The notes below the pieces were generated by a model. It saw only the letters and a program-made list of their open reading frames with translations. It was not told the origin of the DNA and made no database searches. A stretch of DNA of 64,000 nt. It comes from Camellia lanceoleosa (Eukaryota; Streptophyta; Magnoliopsida; Ericales; Theaceae). Numbering within the stretch: the stretch's first letter is position 1; each line of letters opens with the position of its first letter. The stretch covers positions 87,258,084-87,322,083 of the forward strand of contig CM045770.1 in assembly GCA_025200525.1 (NCBI GenBank). The letters run 5' to 3'. A program made the translations under genes and the position numbers. Of this stretch, positions 34,679 through 59,285 are shown one piece after another.

Positions 34679-34690
34679 TGGTATCAGAGC
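34679..34690 (+). other. Copia-1 primer binding site
   Basis: TGGTATCAGAGC, one base after the LTR, is complementary to the 3' end of initiator tRNA-Met, the standard primer of many plant LTR retrotransposons. Confidence 0.93.
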
Positions 34691-37969: not shown

Positions 37970-40384
37970 TGTCACGACCCAAACCCGCCCCTATGGGTTA
38001 GCACCGTAACCGGCCAGTAATCCGAGATTATCGAAGGCCTGCTTAACAGTGATACAGCAAAACAGAGCACAGGGGCATGGCGGAAGCCAATACAGTAGAT
38101 AAACAATATCCAATGAGCTGTGACAGTCTGTATGCAAAAAGATTTTTCATACATACATAGATATATACACAGTATAGAACAGTATGCACAATGTTTACAG
38201 TCATTCAGAATAGGGACCAAATCCCTATTAACAGTACGGTACAGTGCTAACAGTCTATGTAGTTATACAAAACAGACACAGGAACAGACAGGGGAAAATA
38301 AAAATACCCCTAAGCCGTAGCTCGGCAGGCTCGGAACCTCACAGTGAGGCATAATGGTTGGCTTGACAAAACTGGGAGTCTACCTCGACGCCCCTAGCTC
38401 CGGTCTGGTGCCTGCACACCTACATATATATATGAGCAGTGAGCTAAAGCCCAGTGAATAACATAAAGCGTAAAGGGGTTTAGAATGAATGTCTTTACAG
38501 TAATGAAAACAGTTCATTTCAATCAAGATATCGATTGTTCAAGACAAGAAATGATCATATGTGGTACATCCATTAGCATAATAGTAAACAGTAGGTCTTA
38601 GAAGATCGAACAGTAAATGATGGCCATCAATCAGTAAACAGTAGTGGCTCCAACGAGGGAACCGACAGAGATCTCTGTAATAGTAATAGTCAGTAACAGT
38701 AGTTGCTAAGGATGCCACAATATGATTCAGAATATAAGACATACATTCATTCAATTAATAGTAGCAGTTCAGAAAACAGTACAGTTCAATTGTTCAGAAG
38801 ATAATCATTTTTGAACATATCTTTACACAGTTGTTACTCACAGAGTTCTGGGCTATAGTAAGCTAGAGCGTCTCCTCGGAAAGCCAACCCTACACAGTTA
38901 CAGATTGAACACACACTAAGCTACACAGTTGGGAAAGATAATAACTTCTAATTGCCTCGGTGTGTTCTATATCTATATCCTGAATAAGATGCCTTAAATA
39001 TGCCCTAGGAATGCTTAGGATAGAAAGAGGATGTAAAGATGCACTCAGAAAACATTTCAATGAAACAGGGTCCCGCTTGAACGCATAATTCCCCGCTCAA
39101 GCTTACATGCAGACAACGGTTCTGCCGAAAGGCCACTTCCTACGCCGGCGGACATGCAAAAATCAAAAGTCTTTGGATACTCAAAACCACGCCAATTGGC
39201 GCGATAGCGCCGGCGCAAGACAAGGACCGCCGGCCAATTACCCCGCTTGAGCGGATTGTAGTACAGTGCAAAGTACTGGGAGCACGAATTTCCCGCTCGA
39301 GCGCCACTTTCCCTGCTCGAGCGGGAGTCCAAAATTTGGAATTTCTAGATTTGAACTTCCAAGCTCAAATCAAGCTTAAATGCATCAAATTCGATCCTCT
39401 TGGGCTAATTTTCTGGAAAAACACTTCAAAACTCATAATATCACATGTTTCAAAGATCAATTTGGCAAATCAAAGCCCAAGGGTATTTAATTCAAACTCA
39501 ATTTCAAACCAATTTTCATGAACATGCTACAAACATGACATGCATGAGTTTAAATCATTTCAAAGCTTTAAATACAAGCTCAAATGAGCCAAATCATTCA
39601 AGAACATGATGGTATCATGAACCTTAACTAGAACTTGTACATGCATGCAACAATTATCCATGAAATCAACTTAAAACTCAACAATACTGACATGCATACA
39701 TGGAATGAGCTCCAATTCAACATTATTTGACTCAATCTTGACTTAGATCACTAGAGGCTCATGAATCATGCAAGAACAAGCTTAAACACAACAATGAGAG
39801 GTTGAATTTCTTACCTAAGTCTTCAATTAGAGGTGTAGGAGCTCAATTTACAATTATCTTCTAAAATCTCCAAGTCTTCAAGCAATTTACCCAAGAACAA
39901 GTCAATTCTCTCCCTCACTCTCTCTCTTGGTCGGCTATGACAAGAAAATGGTTAAAGAAAATGTTTTGAGCAATGCAAGAATAAGTCCCTCAACATTTGG
40001 TATAATGGCCCACTCAATGGTCTAATGGTAAATAAGTCCAATACTTGCTATCTATCCATATTTAATCTAATTTAATTATACCAAATCAGTTTCTAATTAA
40101 ATATACCATAAAATCACATAAATTCTAATGAATACAGAACATCAATAAATTTCAGATTCGGCCGCCGATAAGGCCTTCAATTTGTAGTTTAAACACAAAG
40201 ACATGAACAGATAATCAAACGATCAACAGATAGAATGCAATTCAAATAGGTACACTCAATCAATTCGGTTTCATTTTTCAGTCAATCAGTTCAGTATTTC
40301 AATTACTTCAATTATCAGTCATAATCAGTCTCAGTTTAACAGTATTCGGTAGTTTATCGGTAAACAGTGGTGAGGGTTATTACA
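37970..40384 (-). mobile_element. Solo LTR A of a large-LTR retrotransposon family
   Basis: Ends TGTCACGACCCAAACCC and GGGTTATTACA, with the perfect 5-bp duplication GTTTC (37965-37969 and 40385-40389). It is 2415 bp without coding capacity. Read on the minus strand it starts TGTAATAACCC and ends TTGGGTCGTGACA, as do the elements at 41640 and 54609. Much of its sequence is shared with 54609-56960 in reverse orientation, for example the AGACCGGAGCTAGG region. The centre (39060-39330) is GC-rich with CGCTCGAGCG palindromes. No flanking internal region exists, so it is most likely a solo LTR left by unequal recombination. Confidence 0.82.
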
Positions 40385-49614: not shown

Positions 49615-49619
49615 AACAC

Positions 49620-50540
49620 TGTTGGAAAAAATGGTTTAACATAGGCATATTTTTTGAGCCCAAGATTTGAGTGGGCCCCAAACGTCTTTGGGATGGGTCC
49701 GAAGAGGTGAAGTGTTCCTTGCCACGTGGCAAGTCATACGGTGAAGACGGAACATTAAAACCATTTATGAGTGAATGGGAAGTTAATGTCGTTTTCAGGT
49801 CTAACATTAATTTTTTAGATAAAATTCATTTGAATTTTTTCAATAAAAATTATTGTGGGAATTTAATTTAATTCTAAATTCAAATTTTAGGTTCTTTTAA
49901 AGTTTCCTAAAGTTTGTACCTCTTCATTTATTTATTTAACTATTTCAATAATTTAATATATATATATATTTGAAATAGTTTAAATAATATATTACCTACA
50001 GGTTTCACTTTGTCCAACGGTTCTTTTCAAATTGTTTGAAAATGTTCATAGTGCAACGGTCAAGAATTCAATGTTTGAATTGGTGTGCACCTTTTCATTC
50101 ATTTTAGAACCTGTTCGGGCTGTGTTAATTTGCCTATTTATATCCACCATTTCGACAGTCTGGGGTAATGATTTTTTTTTTTTATCCGAAAAAATTAATT
50201 TGATTTTTGTCTTTGGCTGTCATAAATTCTGCATTTTTTGTATTATTCTTCATATTAGATTTAGTATAAATTTCAGAGAGTTAGAACACAGGTTTGGTTC
50301 GCCGAACAAATTATTTGGAGTACTACTACAATTTGTGAAGATCATTGTATCCTAGGAGATAGACGCCACTTAACCATAAATACCGTAGTGGGGCGAATCT
50401 GTCTTAAGGACAGAGTGTCACCCACTTGACTTGGTCTTAAATTATTTATTCAGTTCAACGAAATAAATTCGGTATGTTATTTATTTATTTTGTTTGAAAT
50501 ATTTCAAGTTATTTTATTTACACAGAAGATTGTTCCAACA
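49620..50540 (+). repeat. Copia-2 5' LTR
   Basis: 921 bp. It holds a G-box palindrome (49729-49742), a possible TATA box (TATAAA, 50265-50270) and another weak one (ATAAATA, 50376-50382). It also holds the 15-bp segment 50394-50408 complementary to the bases after the LTR. Confidence 0.92.
49729..49742. promoter_or_regulatory. G-box palindrome in the copia-2 LTR
   Basis: TTGCCACGTGGCAA, a 14-bp perfect palindrome centred on CACGTG, the binding core of plant bZIP and bHLH factors (light, abscisic acid, stress). It is conserved in the 3' LTR at 58390-58403. Confidence 0.7.
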
Positions 50541-50542
50541 AT

Positions 50543-50557
50543 CTTAAGACAGATTCG
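50543..50557 (+). other. Putative self-complementary primer site of copia-2
   Basis: CTTAAGACAGATTCG begins two bases after the 5' LTR end, exactly where a primer site belongs. It is the perfect reverse complement of LTR positions 50394-50408 (CGAATCTGTCTTAAG), which is also intact in the 3' LTR at 59134-59148. No TGG-starting tRNA site is present. I infer that the element RNA may fold back to prime its own reverse transcription, as in Tf1-type elements; a structural or packaging role is the alternative. Confidence 0.6.
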
Positions 50558-50900
50558 AATTATTTTGTTTACAGAATTTTTCGTTTGTTTCCCTTTTTCT
50601 TTCTTCGTAAATAATTTCGAAAGAAAATTATTTTCTGTGGATTTACAAAATAATATTCTAGTTGGAAAAACAAATAGTGATTATATGCTATTTGATAGAT
50701 AGTAGTAATATACTGTCTCTTTTCTTTGACAACAACTAGTAGTACGATACTGGTGTCATTAACAATTCAGAATATATTTTTGTGGAATTTTTTTAGAAAT
50801 TAATTTTGGTTTTTAGAAATTATTTTTTGTGTTTTCATTAATTAAAATTCTATTTTCAATATTTTAATTATTGGAGTGTAACAAGAGATTTAAGGTTCTG

Positions 50901-51306
50901 TGTGAAATTAATTTGGTTAAATAAAATTTTATTTTATTTCCAAATTAATTGAAAAATAAAAATTATATTTTTATTTCTTTTATTTTACAGAATTTAATTT
51001 CTTGTGTGGAATTAATTTGGTTAAATAAAATTTTATTTTATTTCCAAGTTAATTGAAAAATAAAAGTTATATTCTTATTTCTTTTATTTTACAGAATTTA
51101 ATCTTCTGTGTGGAATTATTTTGGTTAAATAAAATTTTATTTTATTTCCAAATTAATTGGAAAAAAATAAAAGTTATAGTTTTTATTTCTTTTATTTTCT
51201 GTGTGGAATTAATTTGTTTAAATAAAATTTTATTTTATTTTCAAATTAATTGGAAAATAAAAGTTATATTCTTGTTTTTTTTTTTATTTTTACAGAATTT
51301 AATTCT
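50901..51306 (+). repeat. Four tandem repeats of about 103 bp in the copia-2 leader
   Basis: Units start at about 50901, 51004, 51108 and 51199 with GTGTGGAATTAATTTGGTTA or a close variant. Each contains AAATAAAATTTTATTTTATT and a TTTCTTTTATTTTaCAG-like end. They are very AT-rich and partly self-complementary. No coding capacity. Confidence 0.88.
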
Positions 51307-51374
51307 GTGCATTTGGTTTAATTTTCTGTGTAGTGTAAATTTTAATTATAATTTTGTTTTATAAATTAGAATTG

Positions 51375-52300
51375 ATGGCTACTGAAACAAATGCCCAAAC
51401 AAGTACTACTGTGGTGGCTGCAATGACGCCAACCCCCTCTCCTGTGGTGACAGTGCCAATAAATCATGGAGAAAAGCCAAAGAAGTTCTTAGGAACTGAC
51501 TTTAAAAGATGGCAACAGAAAATGTTGTTCTATCTTACAACTCTGAACCTGGCTCGTTTCCTCCATGAAGATGCTCCTATCCTGAAAGAGGATGAAACCG
51601 ACCGGCAAGTGGTTGCTGCGGTTGATGTTTGGAAACATGCCGATTTCCTTTGCTGGAATTTCGTCTTGAACGGACTTGACAACACATTATACAACGTTTA
51701 CAGTCCAATCAAGACAGTAAAGGAACTTTGGGATTCGTTGGAGAAAAAGTACAAAACGGAAGATGCCGGCTCAAAGAAATTTGTAGTTGGCAGATTCCTG
51801 AATTTTGTAATGGTTGATTCAAAAACTGTGATCAGCCAAGCTCAAGATTTTCAACTCGTTCTGCATGACATTCACGCAGAAGGCATGTCTCTCAGTGAAT
51901 CCTTCCAAGTTGCAGCCTTAATTGAAAAATTACCAAAAGGCTGGAAGGAATTCAAGAACTACCTCAAACACAAGCGCAAAGAAATTTCTATGGACGAATT
52001 AATTGTGCGTTTGAGAATTGAGGAGGACAACCGCACTGGCCGGTAAGCATCTTATGGAGTCTAAGGCAAATGTGGTTGAACATGCTTCAAAAACCAAGAA
52101 ACGAAAGTCTTCTGGAGAAAGTTCATCACAAGGCTCTAAAGGGGGGGATAATAAAAAGTACAAGTTTAATGGCAAATGTTACATCTGTGACAAAGAGGGA
52201 CATCGGGCCAAAGATTGCCGTAGCAAAGGCAAAAGCAAAAGAAGAACAAGCAAGAAGCCTGCTCAAGCCCACATGACTGAAGTGGACAAGATTTCCAATG
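51375..52300 (+). pseudogene. Copia-2 gag, broken by a one-base insertion
   Basis: Starts [17 protein letters not shown] at 51375. The UBN2/gag region includes [31 protein letters not shown] and [19 protein letters not shown]. Near 52040 an extra G shifts the frame. The second frame continues with KHLMESKANVVEHA and the zinc knuckle CYICDKEGHRAKDC (about 52180-52220). An upstream ATG at 51354 gives a longer frame, but the conserved start is 51375. Confidence 0.88.
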
Positions 52301-54603
52301 GTGTAGATGACATCAATCTTTCTGCAGTTGTTTCCGAGACAAATCTTGTCGAAAATCCTAAAGAATGGTGGGTGGACACTGGTGCTACTCGCCATATTTG
52401 TACCGACAAAAAGATGTTCACATCTTACTCTACAGTGGACAATGGTGAACAACTTTTTATGGGCAACTCCTCAACTTCCAAAGTTGAAGGACAAGGAAAG
52501 ATTGTTCTCAAGATGACATCAGGAAAAGAACTCACTCTCAACAATGTCTTTGCATGTCTGGGACATTCGCAAGAATCTTGTTTCCGGATCTTTGTTGAGT
52601 AAGAATGGGTTTAGGCTAGTATTTGAGAGTGATAAATTTGTACTTACTAAGAATGGGATGTATGTAGGAAAAGGTTACATGTCTGATGGCCTTTTCAAGT
52701 TAAATGTAATGATCGTTGTACCCTCAGTTATTAATAATACTACATCTTCTTCTTACTTGCTTGAGTCTTCAAATTTATGGCATGGTAAACTAGGACATGT
52801 TAATTATGGATCTTTGCATAGATTAATTAATATGGAATGTTTACCTAAATTTAACATTGATTCAAATCATAAATGTGAAATTTGCGTTGAGGCAAAATTA
52901 TCTAAAACTCCTTTTCATTCAATTGAAAGAAGTACGGAACCACTTGAATTAATTCATAGTGACATTTGTGATTTTAAATCAATTCAAACTAGAGGTGAGA
53001 AAAAGTATTTTATCACTTTTATAGATGACTATACTAGATATAGTTATGTTTATTTAATTCGAACCAAGGATGAAGCTTTGGAAACTTTCATTCAATATAA
53101 GAATGAAGTTGAAAATCAACTTGGTAAGAAAATCAAGAAACTTAGAAGTGATAGAGGTGGTGAATATGAATCACCTTTTGGTGAGTTTTGTAAAGAACAT
53201 GGACTAATTCATCAAACTACCGCTCCTTACTCACCTCAGCAAAATGAAATTAATAGGACTTTAAAAGAAATGATGAATGCCATGTTAATCAGTTCTGGAT
53301 TACCTCAGAACTTGTGGGGGGAAGCAATACTTTCTGCTAATTACATTTTAAATAAAGTACCCCGAAAGAAAGTGAATCAAGCACCTTATGAAATGTGGCA
53401 TGGTAGAGTACCATCCTACAAATACTTAAAAGTGTGGGGGTGTTTGGCTAAAGTGGCTATTCCTAGTCCTAAAAAGACTAAGATAGGTTCTAAGACCATT
53501 GATTGCATTTTCATTGGTTATGCCAAGAATAGTAGTGCATATCGATTTTTGATTCATAAATCAGAACATACCGAAATGCATGTAAATATTATTATTGAGT
53601 CTCAGAATGCATCTTTCTTTGAACATGTATCTCCAAATAAGACTGGACAAGAGACTAGTAATAAGAAAAGATCTTTTGATGCTATTACTAGTAATGAACA
53701 TGATCAAGAACAAGAGTTAGATCAAAATGAGGAAGAGGAACCTAGGCGTAGTAAACGTGCTAGAACCTCAAAATCGTTTGGTCCAGATTTTCTAACATAT
53801 TTGTTAGAAAATGAGCTTTTAACCTTTAAAGAGGCTATGTCCAGTCCTGAAGCTCTTTTATGGAAAGAAGCTGTCAACAGTGAAGTTGAATCCATCTTGC
53901 AAAATCACACTTGGGAATTGGTGGATTTGCCACCAGGTTGTAAATCTCTTGGGTACAAGTGAATTTTCAAAAGAAAATTGAAAGCAGATGGATCAATCGA
54001 CAAATACAAGGCAAGACTTGTAGTCAAAGGTTTTAGACAGAAAGAAGGTCTAAATTACTTTGACACATACTCACCGGTTACTAGAATAACATCCATTAGA
54101 ATGCTAATTGCCATTGTATCTCTATACAATCTAGAAATTCATCAAATGGATGTTAAAACCGCTTTCTTAAATGGTGAGTTAAATGAAGAAATTTATATGG
54201 AACAACCAGAAGGGTTTTCTGTTACAGGAAAAGAAAAGAAAGTGTGTAAATTGGTTAAATCATTATATGGTTTAAAACAAGCCCCAAAGCAATGGCATGA
54301 GAAATTTGACAAGGCAATGATGTCAAATAGATTTAAAATTATAAGTGTGACAAATGTGTTTATATTAAAACACAGACAAAGGTTATGTCATTGTATGTCT
54401 TTATGTAGATGATATGCTCATCATTGGTAGTAATAATGATATGATTAAAACTACTAAGAAAATGTTGAATAAACATTTTGACATGAAGGACATGGGCATT
54501 GCTGATGTAATTCTTGGTATGAAAATTACCAAAACATCAGAAGGATATGCTTTGTCACAATCTCATTACATTGAGAAAATACTTGACAAATTCAGCAAAG
54601 ATG
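52301..54603 (+). pseudogene. Copia-2 protease, integrase and reverse transcriptase, broken
   Basis: Protease WWVDTGATRHIC lies near 52370-52400. An extra T near 52545 shifts the frame to LHVWDIRKNLVSGSLLS. The integrase zinc region has WHGKLGHVNYGSLHRL and CEICVEAK; the core has HSDICDF, FIDDYTRYS and PQQNEINRTLKE. The last replaces the usual [10 protein letters not shown], so four residues around the catalytic glutamate seem deleted. Reverse transcriptase: GYK-stop (TGA at 53960, tryptophan expected)-IFKRKLKADG, MDVKTAFLNGE, LYGLKQAPKQW, frameshifts near 54340 and 54370, then YVDDMLIIGSNND near 54405. It continues after solo LTR C at 56966. Confidence 0.88.
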
Positions 54604-54608
54604 ATGAT

Positions 54609-56960
54609 TGTAACAACCTTCATACTGATTACCGATTAATTACTGATTATTACTGAATTAACCACTGATTACTGTTATACGGAGACTGAATATGATTGGT
54701 AATTGAACCGACTAAATTCCTAATCGAAAAAAGCTGAACCGATTAATTTGTGTTTGTTTGACTTGCATTGCCTATCTGCTTAATCGCTTAACTATCTGTT
54801 CATGTTTATGTGTTTAAACTGCTAATTGAAGGCCTTATCGGCGGCCGAATCGGAAATTGATTAATGTCTCATGATCACTAGAATTAATGGGATTTTATGG
54901 CATAATCATCTGAAAATCGATTTAGTATGATTAAACTAGATTAATCTAAGCCAAATGAATAGAGTTGCCTTATTTACGGAATTGCCATCTAGTAGGGCCT
55001 TTGTTTATTATTATGTTGAGGCTTATTACACCTTGAAGCAACATTTTCATCAGCTCATTTTGAGCTTACAACCGAATTAGAGAGAGAGAAAGTGAGGAGA
55101 TTTGGCTTCAATTGGGAGTTGTCTTGGAGATTTAGTGGATTTTGAAGAAAGATTGCAAATTTAAGCTTCCCTTCTTATACTCAAGACCCAAGGTAGATCA
55201 TTGACCTTCTTCATTGTATATTTGAGTTGATTTTGCATGTTTCATGTTCAATTTATGAGCTAAGCCATGTTTTAAGCTTAACATGTTGTATTGGAGCTTA
55301 ATTGTTGCATGCATGTTAATATTGTTAAGTTTTGAGGTCATAGTTCATGATTTCATTACATGCATGTCCATATTTTGAAAGTAGTCCATGAATCCATCTT
55401 GTTTTGAAAGGAATGAGCTCATTTGAGCAAGCTTTGAAGCTTCAATTGGTTTTAAAACTCATGCATGGCATGTTTAAAGATTGTTCATGAAAATGGGTTT
55501 GATTTTGGATTTAATTGACTCACCTTTGGGACTTGAATTCATAAATTGGCTTTTAAAACTTGTTATACATTGTTTTGGGATGTATTTTTCCAGAATTTGG
55601 GCCCAAGAGGTCGAGAATTGAGTTGAGAATGCTTGGTTTGAGCTTGGAAGGCAAATCTGGAAATTCCAGATTTGGCTTCTTCGCCGAGCGATTCTCGCCG
55701 AGCGAAACGCTTTCCTCGAGCCACGCCGGCGAAGGATTGGTGGCTCGAGCATAAAATCGAGCATCCAAGATTTTTATTGTTTCATCGCACCACTCGAGGA
55801 AGGATTGTTCGCCGAATTAAGCCTTTGATTTTGCAACCTCGCTCGAGCGAAGGAAGGCTCGCTCGAGCGAGACCCCTGTTTTCAGCAACTTTTGAAAAAT
55901 GCCTTCCAACTGTATTTTTGCATCCTCATCCCATCCTAGGCATTCTTAGGCCTAGTTTAAGGCATCTTAATGAGGATTTAGACATAGAACCACACCGAGG
56001 AAATTTAGGGATTTAATTATCATCCTTCCCGACTGTGAAACTTAGTGTGTGTTCTATTTGTTAACTGTTTAGGGTTGGCTCTCGGGGACGCGCTCTAGCT
56101 GCTATTAGCCCAATCTCTGTGAGTAACAATTGTGTAAAGATATGTTCAAAATGATTATCTTTTGAATACTGAACTGAACTGTTTATTGAACTGATATTGT
56201 TTACTGAATGAATGTATGTCCTGTATTCTGAACTGTACTGTGGCATCCTTAGCACTTACTGTTTACTGTTACAGAGCTCTGTCGGTTCCCTTGTGGAACC
56301 ATACTGCATCTTGATTGAGGGCCATTATTATCATGGTTCTAAGACCCGGTCCTTTTGGACCTACTGTTTATAGGCTAATGGATGTACCACATATGACTGA
56401 TTGATTGAAATACTGAAAGACTGAATACTGTTTAATGAATTGTTTTCCTCACCGTAAGGACATCCATTCATAACCTCTTTACGCATTGTGTTATTCACTG
56501 GGCTTTAGTTCACTGTTTATATATATATATGTTGGTTCTCAGCAGCCAGACCGGAGCTAGGAGCATGGGTTGGTCCCTAGTTTTGTCAAGCCAGCCTATG
56601 TGCCTCACTGCGAGGTTTCGAGTTGCCATGCTATGGCTTGGGGTGTTTTTGTGTCCCCCATCGGTCTCCTTACCGTATTGTACTACTGTATAGACATCTC
56701 TTGTTTTCTTGTATTGTTATCGAGGATTAGGTCCGTCTTGATCAATGTTGTATATGATTGTATAGATCAGACTGCTCGAATCGTATGAATGCATGAAAAT
56801 GTTTTTGGCATCTGATTTTCCGACTCAATGGACACTAGTTATTTATTGTATTTCCGCCAGTCCTCAGACTGCTTAATCAGACATCGTTTTGAGGCCTTCG
56901 GTAATCTTGACATCGGCGATTCTGATGCTAAACCGATAGGGCCAGGTTTGGGTCGTGACA
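54609..56960 (+). mobile_element. Solo LTR C of the large-LTR family, inside copia-2
   Basis: Starts TGTAACAACC, ends GGTTTGGGTCGTGACA, with the 5-bp duplication ATGAT (54604-54608 and 56961-56965). 2352 bp. It resembles solo LTR A in reverse orientation more than B. The central GC-rich part (55680-55880) has TCGCTCGAGCGA twice (55839-55850, 55859-55870). No genes. Confidence 0.87.
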
Positions 56961-56965
56961 ATGAT

Positions 56966-57709
56966 CATCTTGCTAGAACTCCTATAGATGTTAATTTGTA
57001 TCTTTCTAAGAATATACAGGAAAGTATTTCTCAATTAGAGTATACCCAAATTATTGGAAGCTTAATGTACTTGATGAACTGCACTCGCCCAGATATAGCT
57101 TATGCAGTAAGTAAATTAAGTAGATATACGAGTAATCCGAGAGTAGAACACTGGAAAGCAATTATAAGGGTTCTTAGATATCTCCGATTTACTCGTAACA
57201 TTGGGCTTAATTTTACTAGATATCCAGCAGTACTTGAAGGATACTGTGATGCAAATTGGATATCGGATACTAGAGACTCTAAGTCCACCAGTGGGTATGT
57301 CTTTACTCTTGGGGAGGCGGCTGTATCTTGGAAATCTTCCAAACAGACTTGTATTGCTAGGTCTACTATGGAATCTGAATTCATAGCTTTAGACAAAGCT
57401 GGGGAAGAGACAGAATGGCTTCGCCACTTTCTTGAAGATATTCCAATATGGCCAAAATCGGTGCCTGCTATCTGCATACATTGCGATAGTCAATCAGCTA
57501 TAGGTAGGGCACAGAGTCATATGTATAACGGTAAGTCACGACACATTCGTCGTCGACATAACACCGTAAGACAACTCCTCTCTAATGGAATTATTTCCAT
57601 AGAATATGTTAAGTCTAAAGACAACATAACGGATCCACTAACCAAAGGGTTAGCAAGAGAGTTAGTTGATAATTCATCGAGGGGAATGAGACTTAAGCCT
57701 ATTAAATAA
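56966..57709 (+). pseudogene. Copia-2 RNase H and connection region
   Basis: The open frame includes [81 protein letters not shown] and [14 protein letters not shown], ending MRLKPIK at 57709. RNase H degrades the RNA template during copying. The frame itself is intact, but the polyprotein is cut by solo LTR C upstream. Confidence 0.88.
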
Positions 57710-58290
57710 GAGTTACCACAATGGCAACCCAACCTAGTTGACTAAAGATCCCAAGATCTAGGTTCAAAGGGACAACCGAGTTGTGATTGACTCAGAAGGA
57801 TCACTGGGGAGTCCAACTCCTACCCATTTCTAGGATAAAATAGTGATGTCTGCAGCGTTTTAGGTTAAGTAATACTTTTAATGATTCTTATATCTAGGTA
57901 AACCTAGAGGAGTATGGCAGGATACTCTTCATAAGAATCACCTATGTGAGTGTGAATTGGGCCGGTTCTATGAGATTTGTGAAGGGCTACAATTCTCTAG
58001 AGCACTCATGAAAGACCAGGTTGTTCAGGGCCAAAATGAACACAATAGTGAGAACTAAACTGTGTCTGGGGATATACTGTGTGAGTTCTATTGTCTTGGT
58101 TTACACAAACGGCTGAACAGTTCAAGACATCATGTTCACTGTTTAGCTAGTAAATCCAATAGTGTCTCACAAGGGAAGGTTCAAAGCCAAAAGCTACCTA
58201 TCCTTTGCAGAATATTACCAATTTCTGTACTCTTTGATTAGATCATGTTGTTGCATTTTCTCTCCGTCAAATTCCATTCATGTGGGGGAT

Positions 58291-59280
58291 TGTTGGAAAA
58301 AATGGTTTAATATAGGCATATTTTCTGAGCCCAAGATTTGAGTGGGCCCCAAACGTCTTTGGGATGGGTCTGAAGAGGTAAAGTGTTCCTTGCCACGTGG
58401 CAAGTCACACGGTGAAGACGGAACGTCAAAACCATTTATGAGTGAATAGGAAGTTGACATTGTTTTCAGGTTTAACATTAATTTTTTAGATAAAATTCAT
58501 TTGAATTTTTTCAATAAAAATTATTGTGGGAATTTAATTTAATTCTAAATTCAAATTTTGGATTCCTAAGTGGTTTCCTAAAATTTGTAATTGTGGGAAT
58601 TTAATTTAATTCTAAATTCAAATTTTAGGTTCTTTTAAAGTTTTCTAAAATTTGTACCTCTTCATTTATTTATTTAACTATTTCAATAGTTTAATATATA
58701 TATATATATTTGAAATAGTTTAAATAATATATTACCTACAGGTTTCACTTTGTCCAACGGTTCTTTTCAAATTGTTTGAAAATGTTCATAGTGCAACGGT
58801 CAAGAATTTAATGTTTGAATTGGTGTGCACCTTTTCATTCATTTTTGGAACCTGTTCGGGCTGTGTTAATTTGCCTATTTATACCCATCATTCCGGCAGT
58901 CTGGGGTAATGATTATTTTTTTTTATCCGAAAAAATCAGTTTGATTTTTGTTTTTGGCTGTCATAAATTCCGTATTTTTTGTATTATTCTTCATATTAGA
59001 TTAGTATAAATTTCAGAGAATTAGAACACAGGTTTGGTTTCCCGAACAAATTGTTTGGAGTACTACTACAATTTGTGAAGATCATTGTATCCTGGGAGAT
59101 AGATGCCACTTAACCGTAAGTACCGTAACGGGGCGAATCTGTCTTAAGGACAGAGTGTCACACACTTGACTTGGTCTTAAATTATTTATTCGATTCAACG
59201 AAATAAATTCGATATGTTATTTATTTATTTTGTTTGAAATATTTTAAGTTATTTTATTTGTACAAAAGATTGTTCCAACA
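58291..59280 (+). repeat. Copia-2 3' LTR with a 69-bp extra segment
   Basis: 990 bp. It is longer than the 5' LTR because TTGTGGGAATTTAATTTAAT and its continuation occur twice (about 58522-58557 and 58589-58627), with TGGATTCCTAAGTGG between. Otherwise it closely matches the 5' LTR. Confidence 0.92.
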
Positions 59281-59285
59281 AACAC

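What the first reader, a model, noticed from the sequence alone, without database searches (positions are those of the whole stretch)
50394..50557. Copia-2 may prime its own reverse transcription: 15-bp perfect complement of its LTR placed where the tRNA site should be
Directly after the 5' LTR (ends 50540) there is no TGG-type tRNA site. Two bases later begins CTTAAGACAGATTCG (50543-50557), the exact reverse complement of CGAATCTGTCTTAAG inside the LTR (50394-50408, repeated at 59134-59148). A 15-bp match at exactly this place is very unlikely by chance. Self-priming is documented for Tf1 of fission yeast and related Ty3-type elements, whose 5' RNA end pairs with a site just after the LTR. 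In a plant Ty1/copia element it would be unusual and, to my knowledge, not well described. The two neighbouring elements in the same nest use ordinary tRNA-Met sites, which makes the contrast internal.
Basis: partly seen in the sequence, partly recalled or inferred. Interest (0 to 1): 0.87.

Follow-up and report, generated by a model that had tools for sequence, protein, structure and literature searches.

The report
Self-primed plant copia retrotransposon, with covariation
This plant jumping gene appears to start copying itself with a piece of its own RNA instead of a borrowed tRNA, a habit already predicted in print for its likely lineage, and related families in the same genome change both pairing partners together, as real pairing requires.

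Summary
The 5' LTR ends at 50540, and 50543-50557 is the exact reverse complement of 50394-50408 inside it. There is no TGG-type site; both neighbours carry TGGTATCAGAGC.

What is added is evidence. Within the window's family, 40 copies show one-sided changes only. Across six families of the same genome the arms change together: covariation 0.265 against 0.134 +/- 0.014 in shuffles, 0 of 500, on 28 distinct rows from 38 elements. One family's arm was predicted from its PBS and found. Ten loci chosen without knowing their sites all had the LTR module and this PBS type.

The primer also lies in a conserved ~70-nt LTR hairpin whose other strand pairs with the same bases; this part is less certain. 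TATA-like boxes ~210-260 nt upstream suggest an internal primer, unlike Tf1. There are no RNA or enzyme data.

The parts
49620..50540 (+). 5' LTR of the copia element
58291..59280 (+). 3' LTR (69 nt longer, largely through an internal duplication of about 67 nt)
49615..49619 (+). target site duplication AACAC (left)
59281..59285 (+). target site duplication AACAC (right)
50394..50408 (+). LTR arm = inferred self-primer (3' end inferred at 50408)
   Evidence: exact reverse complement of 50543-50557; covaries with it across families
59134..59148 (+). copy of the primer arm in the 3' LTR
50541..50542 (+). 2-nt spacer AT between LTR and primer binding site
   Evidence: 2 nt in 37 of 38 and 1 nt in 1 of 38 elements, in a search that allowed 1-3 nt after a CA
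50543..50557 (+). primer binding site (self-primer type)
50345..50413 (+). conserved LTR module; its 3' strand contains the primer and it can fold as a hairpin
   Evidence: model R1, 78.7 bits (its own sequence was in the model); fold; pair counts
59085..59153 (+). the same module in the 3' LTR
   Evidence: model R1, 81.4 bits (also in the model)
50356..50363 (+). upstream strand of the LTR hairpin, alternative partner of the primer
50526..50545 (+). small hairpin over the LTR end and the first 3 nt of the PBS (window's family; not obvious by eye in F2-F5)
   Evidence: sequence, fold, contexts
50135..50142 (+). TATA-like box, 259 nt upstream of the primer arm (promoter inferred; another TATA-like box lies at -129)
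58282..58289 (+). probable polypurine tract GTGGGGGA before the 3' LTR
   Evidence: sequence; named by eye
51339..52046 (+). gag reading frame
   Evidence: PF14223
52517..53962 (+). integrase part of pol
   Evidence: PF13976, PF00665, PF25597
53963..54412 (+). reverse transcriptase part of pol (frame then changes)
   Evidence: PF07727

Best explanation
The element primes reverse transcription with its own RNA. The LTR segment ending at 50408 (...UCUGUCUUAAG) pairs with the primer binding site two bases after the LTR. The RNA is cut after 50408, and the new 3' end is extended through U5. Because the cut lies inside sequence repeated at the 3' end of the RNA, strand transfer restores what lies upstream. 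Before that, the primer probably sits in the 3' strand of a conserved LTR hairpin and switches from its upstream partner (GGAGAYAGA) to the PBS. Shown here: the pairing potential, its covariation across families, the absence of a TGG-type tRNA site, and a conserved LTR module that can fold as that hairpin. Inferred: cleavage, extension, strand transfer and the switch itself. The confidence below is for priming by the LTR segment; the hairpin switch is less certain (see the section on the most novel reading).
For: Exact 15-bp match two bases after the LTR. In 38 of 41 elements read, module and PBS were both located; the arm was taken by model position, not by pairing. The 11-bp core (G-U allowed) is fully paired in 26 of 38, with one pair lost in 8 and three lost in 4. 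Covariation on 28 distinct rows: 90.2% of cells paired against at most 52.6% when slid; 7 of 15 pairs changed on both sides; score above all 500 shuffles. Core paired changes separate families: pair 8 G-C to A-U (F5), pair 10 C-G to U-A (F2, F5), pair 15 G-C to A-U (F3, F4); the integrase tree groups F2 with F5 and F3 with F4, so one event each suffices. The F5 arm was predicted from its PBS and found 185 nt upstream: exact in 2 of 4, with transitions kept as G-U pairs in the other 2. 10 of 10 loci chosen blind to the site carried module and PBS motif, none TGGTATCAGA. Nine TGGTATCAGAG sites (500 nt upstream available at seven) have no upstream complement of 8 nt or more. Hairpin: one sequence from each of five families, cut at the primer end, folds alike; RNAalifold given no structure predicts the same two helices; 96.7% of cells paired over 40 rows against at most 53.9% slid, with a C-G to U-A change outside the primer in 8 rows.
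Against: Within the window's own family, 40 copies show no both-sided change, and in 30 of them the arms are not more conserved than their surroundings. Some copies share an uncompensated PBS change at pair 4 (6 C and 2 A in 40) and 4 of 40 have G to A at the inferred primer 3' end. Of the 10 blind loci only 5 have an unbroken perfect complement of 10 nt or more to their PBS; all 10 have 10 or 11 of 11 core pairs with G-U allowed. In 2 of 41 elements no module was found (L067, L081), and in L072 no PBS. Not every measure beats the shuffles: the number of both-sided pairs is reached in 26 of 500. For the hairpin, on the unfitted alignment the score is reached in 20 of 500 and paired cells in 62 of 500; on the fitted one the number of both-sided pairs and of further pair types is reached in 484 of 500 each. 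Shuffles ignore relatedness. Folding favours the PBS partner in 6 of 10 sequences, not in all. No RNA or enzyme data.
Confidence: 0.88

Rival explanations
1. Tf1-style self-priming in the strict sense: transcription starts at or just before 50394, so the primer is the first ~15 nt of the RNA.
For: Position after the LTR and the ~11-bp core match Tf1 (Tf1: first 11 bases pair with the PBS, cut between bases 11 and 12; PMC7175516).
Against: The upstream strand of the conserved hairpin lies 31-38 nt before the primer (50356-50363) and would not be in the RNA. TATA-like boxes recur at -208 to -259 in 26 of 32 elements with enough upstream sequence (loose motif, AT-rich LTRs, no shuffle control; 6 copies of the window's family also have one at -68). 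An ATAAATA 18 nt before the arm is too close, and the 3' LTR copy lacks it.
Confidence: 0.12
2. A host tRNA or half-tRNA primes, and the LTR match is a by-product.
For: Half-tRNA priming is known in plant copia (Bianca, Osser; PMC6317226).
Against: No TGG in the first 60 nt after the LTR. Among 40 host tRNA genes (Lys, Asn, Ile, Arg, Cys, Gln, Ala, Asp) the longest complement to 50541-50560 is 8 nt, at a T-loop. That test had no positive control: Met was not in the sample, and the neighbour's TGGTATCAGAGC site found no partner there either (7 of 12). The PBS varies between families in step with each family's own LTR, which a fixed host tRNA cannot explain.
Confidence: 0.03
3. The inverted repeat serves something other than priming (packaging, dimerisation, silencing), and the true primer is unknown.
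For: The primer bases can take part in more than one conserved pairing; conserved leader structures often serve packaging (general knowledge).
Confidence: 0.06

Closest known systems
TAR lineage of plant Ty1/copia (REXdb; includes Houba, Osr-1, Fourf), Neumann et al. 2019, PMC6317226
   Same: Plant Ty1/copia, 5-bp target duplication, region complementary to the 5' LTR starting 0-5 bp after it; self-priming predicted there for the lineage
   Different: In the passages read the self-primer was detected as a match of at least 10 bp by blastn; covariation, an LTR hairpin and an internal primer do not appear in those passages. Its supplementary files were not open to me
Tf1/sushi group of Ty3-type chromoviruses (fission yeast, vertebrates)
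   Same: Self-primer pairs with a PBS just after the 5' LTR; about 11 bp core; further duplexes around the PBS (pretzel) are described
   Different: Different superfamily. Tf1's primer is the RNA 5' end; here it is probably ~200 nt inside and part of a hairpin of its own (both inferred)
Half-tRNA-primed copia (Bianca, Osser, Bryco)
   Same: Plant Ty1/copia with a non-standard PBS
   Different: Partner is a host tRNA half; here the partner is the element's own LTR

Membership tests
TAR lineage (REXdb) | Ty1/copia domain order gag, protease region, integrase, reverse transcriptase | tested here: met
   Pfam hits for gag, zinc knuckle, integrase and reverse transcriptase in that order; RNase H at 56816-57709 recognised by eye only, no Pfam hit
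TAR lineage (REXdb) | self-primer: at least 10 bp complementary to the 5' LTR, starting 0-5 bp after it | tested here: met
   15 bp, offset 2
TAR lineage (REXdb) | clusters with TAR elements on RT, RH and INT trees | not testable with these tools
   no labelled REXdb sequences on hand; on an integrase tree F1-F5 form one clade (support 0.835) apart from four elements with a TGGTATCAGAG site upstream (L002, L006, L007, the window's outer copia)
Tf1/sushi | Ty3-type with chromodomain integrase | tested here: not met
   copia-type gag, integrase and RVT_2
Tf1/sushi | primer is the 5' end of the RNA | tested here: inconclusive
   TATA-like boxes 208-259 nt upstream in 26 of 32 elements argue against it; no shuffle control and no RNA data
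tRNA-primed copia | TGG plus complement of a tRNA 3' end just after the LTR | tested here: not met
   no TGG in the first 60 nt; best 12-nt 3'-end match 6 of 12 among 40 tRNA genes of 8 amino acids
Bianca-type half-tRNA priming | complement of an anticodon-arm half | tested here: inconclusive
   longest internal match 8 nt, at a T-loop, in 40 tRNA genes covering 8 of 20 amino acids

The most novel reading that the evidence does not exclude
In this copia lineage the primer is an internal RNA segment held in a conserved LTR hairpin that behaves like a two-state switch: closed, the primer pairs upstream; open, it pairs with the PBS. Priming then needs cleavage of the RNA ~200 nt from its 5' end. 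This would be a self-priming design distinct from Tf1, and shared by families whose integrase identity to the window element is down to about 66%.
Probability: 0.4. Interest if true: 0.7.

Novelty: new member of a known kind. Interest (0 to 1): 0.5.

Why it matters
In the passages I read, self-priming in plant copia elements rests on a sequence match. Paired changes across families turn it into a supported structure and narrow it to an 11-bp core. If the hairpin switch holds, it would explain how an element can do without host tRNA and where its RNA must be cut, and it gives exact positions to test. The 74-position RNA model may also serve as a marker for the lineage; that was not tested outside this genome.

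Tried and rejected
Anticodon-arm mimicry of the LTR segment (CUGUC-UUAAG-GACAG straddling the inferred cut): seen in the window's family, but by eye the register shifts in other families, so it was dropped as a conserved feature; no count was made.

Tf1-like 'pretzel': the LTR-end hairpin 50526-50545 pairs part of the PBS in the window's family but is not obvious by eye in F2-F5, so it is not part of the main claim.

Covariation within the window's family: looked for in 40 copies and not found.

First covariation count on 10 rows picked by best pairing: replaced by 28 distinct rows taken by model position, decayed copies included. In the hairpin alignments rows were left out: one search lists 28 rows; A3 uses 16 of them and A4 uses 14. 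The left-out rows were decayed or recombinant ones and near-duplicates of the window's family. A6 holds all 40 model matches.

The family labels F1-F6 are my grouping by similarity, not a formal clustering.

Relatives in viral contigs: none confirmed (protein scans), no pattern match. Genome contigs gave 18 loci in bacterial or metagenome assemblies, probably eukaryotic contamination, used only as comparison. L004's TGGTATCAGAG lies downstream of its reading frame, so it may not be that element's own site. Rfam: no match for 50100-50700.

Paper searches (open PMC library only; listings seen). In the passages read, only PMC6317226 describes self-priming in plant copia. Listed papers that hold 'self-priming' but were not opened include PMC5445492, PMC2864245, PMC6934838 and PMC4600332.

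Full report
WHAT IS THERE. The window's inner copia element runs from 49620 to 59280, with LTRs of 921 and 990 bp and a perfect AACAC target duplication. Gag, integrase and reverse transcriptase domains are recognised in Ty1/copia order. Two bases after the 5' LTR begins CTTAAGACAGATTCG (50543-50557), the exact reverse complement of 50394-50408 in the LTR. No TGG occurs in the first 60 bases after the LTR. The two neighbouring elements carry TGGTATCAGAGC at 34679 (+) and 48845 (-).

CHANCE. From base composition the match is expected about 5e-6 times. In the real, AT-rich and repeat-rich window, 29 of 8715 sampled positions reach 15 nt or more under the same rule. One copy alone is therefore only suggestive.

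SAME FAMILY. The genome (G000, 3.0 Gb, 790 contigs; 15 very large ones, which fits tea, an inference) gave 2629 first-look candidates for this stretch, of which 40, the window's own copy among them, were scored. I read all 40. Positions of the helix vary on one side only. Twenty copies pair at all positions with G-U allowed; 15 miss one, 2 miss two, 3 miss three. Primer positions 10-14 (CUUAA) and their partners are invariant in 40 of 40. In 30 of the copies the arms were compared with their surroundings and are not more conserved (mean minor-letter frequency 0.036 and 0.042 against 0.027 in between). So the family itself gives no covariation, and several outer changes are shared and uncompensated, for example PBS position 4 in 8 of 40.

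OTHER FAMILIES. A protein search with a citrus relative scored 64 of 68393 candidates; 30 loci were read. None of the 30 has TGGTATCAGAG in the first 1600 nt of the oriented locus. Other families carry different arms that still match: L064 CTTAAAACAGATTTC and L086 TTTAAGACAGAAATTCG, both perfect; L074 TTTAAGACAGAA, perfect over 12 nt. In family F5 only the PBS (CTTAAAATAGATTCG) lay in the fetched stretch. The predicted arm CGAATCTATTTTAAG was then fetched and found 185 nt upstream, exact in L065 and L087, and with transitions kept as G-U pairs in L078 and L088. A second search with a distant gag protein listed 150 of 9677 candidates. Ten were picked, mostly for long open frames and blind to the site. 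All 10 have the module and a PBS of this motif; none has TGGTATCAGA. Only 5 of the 10 show an unbroken perfect complement of 10 nt or more to their PBS; with G-U pairs allowed, all 10 keep 10 or 11 of the 11 core pairs. They add family F6 (7 loci).

COUNTING. Of 41 elements read (window, 30, 10), the LTR module was found in 39 and module plus PBS in 38. The misses are L067 and L081 (no module) and L072 (PBS not found). The LTR arm was taken by its place in the RNA model, not by pairing. The PBS was taken by a motif of its own, two mismatches allowed, 1-3 nt after a CA. All 15 pairs are Watson-Crick in 12 of 38. The 11-bp core (G-U allowed) is complete in 26, lacks one pair in 8 and three in 4. 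On the 28 distinct rows, 90.2% of cells pair (slid by 1-3 columns: at most 52.6%), 40 cells have both sides changed (shuffles 16.0 +/- 3.5, 0 of 500), and the score is 0.265 (shuffles 0.134 +/- 0.014, 0 of 500). The number of pairs with a both-sided change, 7, is reached in 26 of 500 shuffles. Shuffles ignore relatedness. On the integrase tree F2 groups with F5 (support 0.981) and F3 with F4 (0.878), so core pairs 8, 10 and 15 need at least one paired event each, and outer pair 4 another (F6 is not on the tree).

CONTROLS. Nine sites with TGGTATCAGAG (two in the window, seven in contaminant loci, two of these with less than 100 nt upstream) have no upstream complement of 8 nt or more. Forty host tRNA genes (8 amino acids; Met and 11 others missing) have at most 8 nt of complement to 50541-50560; the neighbour's site found no partner in that sample either, so there was no positive control.

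THE HAIRPIN. Just upstream of the arm, F1-F5 share a block GTATCCTGGGAGACAGACGCC...GGCG, and F6 has a variant of it. One sequence each from F1-F5, cut by me at the primer end, folds into the same hairpin: GGAGAYAG with the CUGUCUU part of the primer, a 2-3 nt bulge, then CGCC/GGCG, with CGUCC/GGACG in F3 and CGCCC/GGGCG in F4. Single-sequence z-scores are modest, -0.6 to -2.4. RNAalifold, given no structure, predicts the same two helices. On the unfitted alignment the shuffle test is weak (score reached in 20 of 500, paired cells in 62 of 500, both-sided cells in 5 of 500), though sliding breaks it (93.8% to at most 52.0%). On the model-fitted alignment of 40 rows from 39 elements, 96.7% of cells pair (slid at most 53.9%) and no shuffle reaches the score, but the number of both-sided pairs (2) and of further pair types is reached in 484 of 500. 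The two both-sided pairs are one in the primer (G-C/A-U) and one outside it (C-G/U-A, 8 rows). A model built from F1, F2 and F5 finds F3, F4 and F6 at 33-58 bits; this shows homology of the module, not by itself its structure. The same primer bases thus have two possible partners. In ten leaders folded with both partners present, the PBS partner dominates in 6 (mean pair probability 0.78-0.98), the upstream one leads in L060 (0.68) and L097 (0.54), and L084 and L102 are undecided.

WHERE THE RNA STARTS. TATA-like boxes occur 208-259 nt upstream of the arm in 26 of 32 elements with enough sequence, at similar places within families; the 6 misses are all in F1. The motif was loose, no shuffle control was made, and LTRs are AT-rich; 6 F1 copies also have one at -68, and the window one at -129. 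If the distal boxes are the promoters, the RNA starts roughly 180-230 nt before the primer, unlike Tf1, where the first 11 bases are the primer (PMC7175516 passages).

MECHANISM. Most likely the RNA folds back so that the LTR arm pairs with the PBS; cleavage after 50408 leaves a 3' end that is extended from 50542 into U5; the cut lies in sequence repeated in the 3' LTR, so strand transfer restores it. Pairing is supported; cleavage and extension are inferred. In Tf1 an RNase H cut makes the primer (passage).

WHAT IS KNOWN. Neumann et al. 2019 surveyed 13,863 plant elements, predicted self-primers from matches of at least 10 bp (12% of elements), and found them characteristic of the TAR lineage in Ty1/copia and of Tcn1 in Ty3/gypsy; for Houba and Osr-1 they cite Capy 2005. 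The element meets that PBS criterion. Its place on a TAR tree could not be tested. The interest lies in the covariation and in the hairpin, not in the discovery of self-priming in plant copia.

Noticed in passing
window 54650-56650: A stretch related in inverted orientation to 38300-40363 (72-78% identity) lies between the reverse transcriptase and RNase H parts of the element; probably another transposable element.
   Followed up: no
window 58523-58707: The 3' LTR carries an internal duplication of about 67 nt that the 5' LTR lacks.
   Followed up: no
window 50884-51309: Four tandem copies of a ~104-nt AT-rich unit in the leader between PBS and gag.
   Followed up: no
window 50399-50413: CTGTCTTAAGGACAG can form a small hairpin across the inferred cut site; similar but register-shifted complements seem to follow the primer in other families (by eye).
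   Followed up: partly
L001-L018: Copia-type elements in public bacterial or metagenome assemblies, probably eukaryotic contamination.
   Followed up: partly
L040, L061, L063, L080, L085: Decayed copies in which an indel or rearrangement has broken one arm; useful as neutral comparison.
   Followed up: partly
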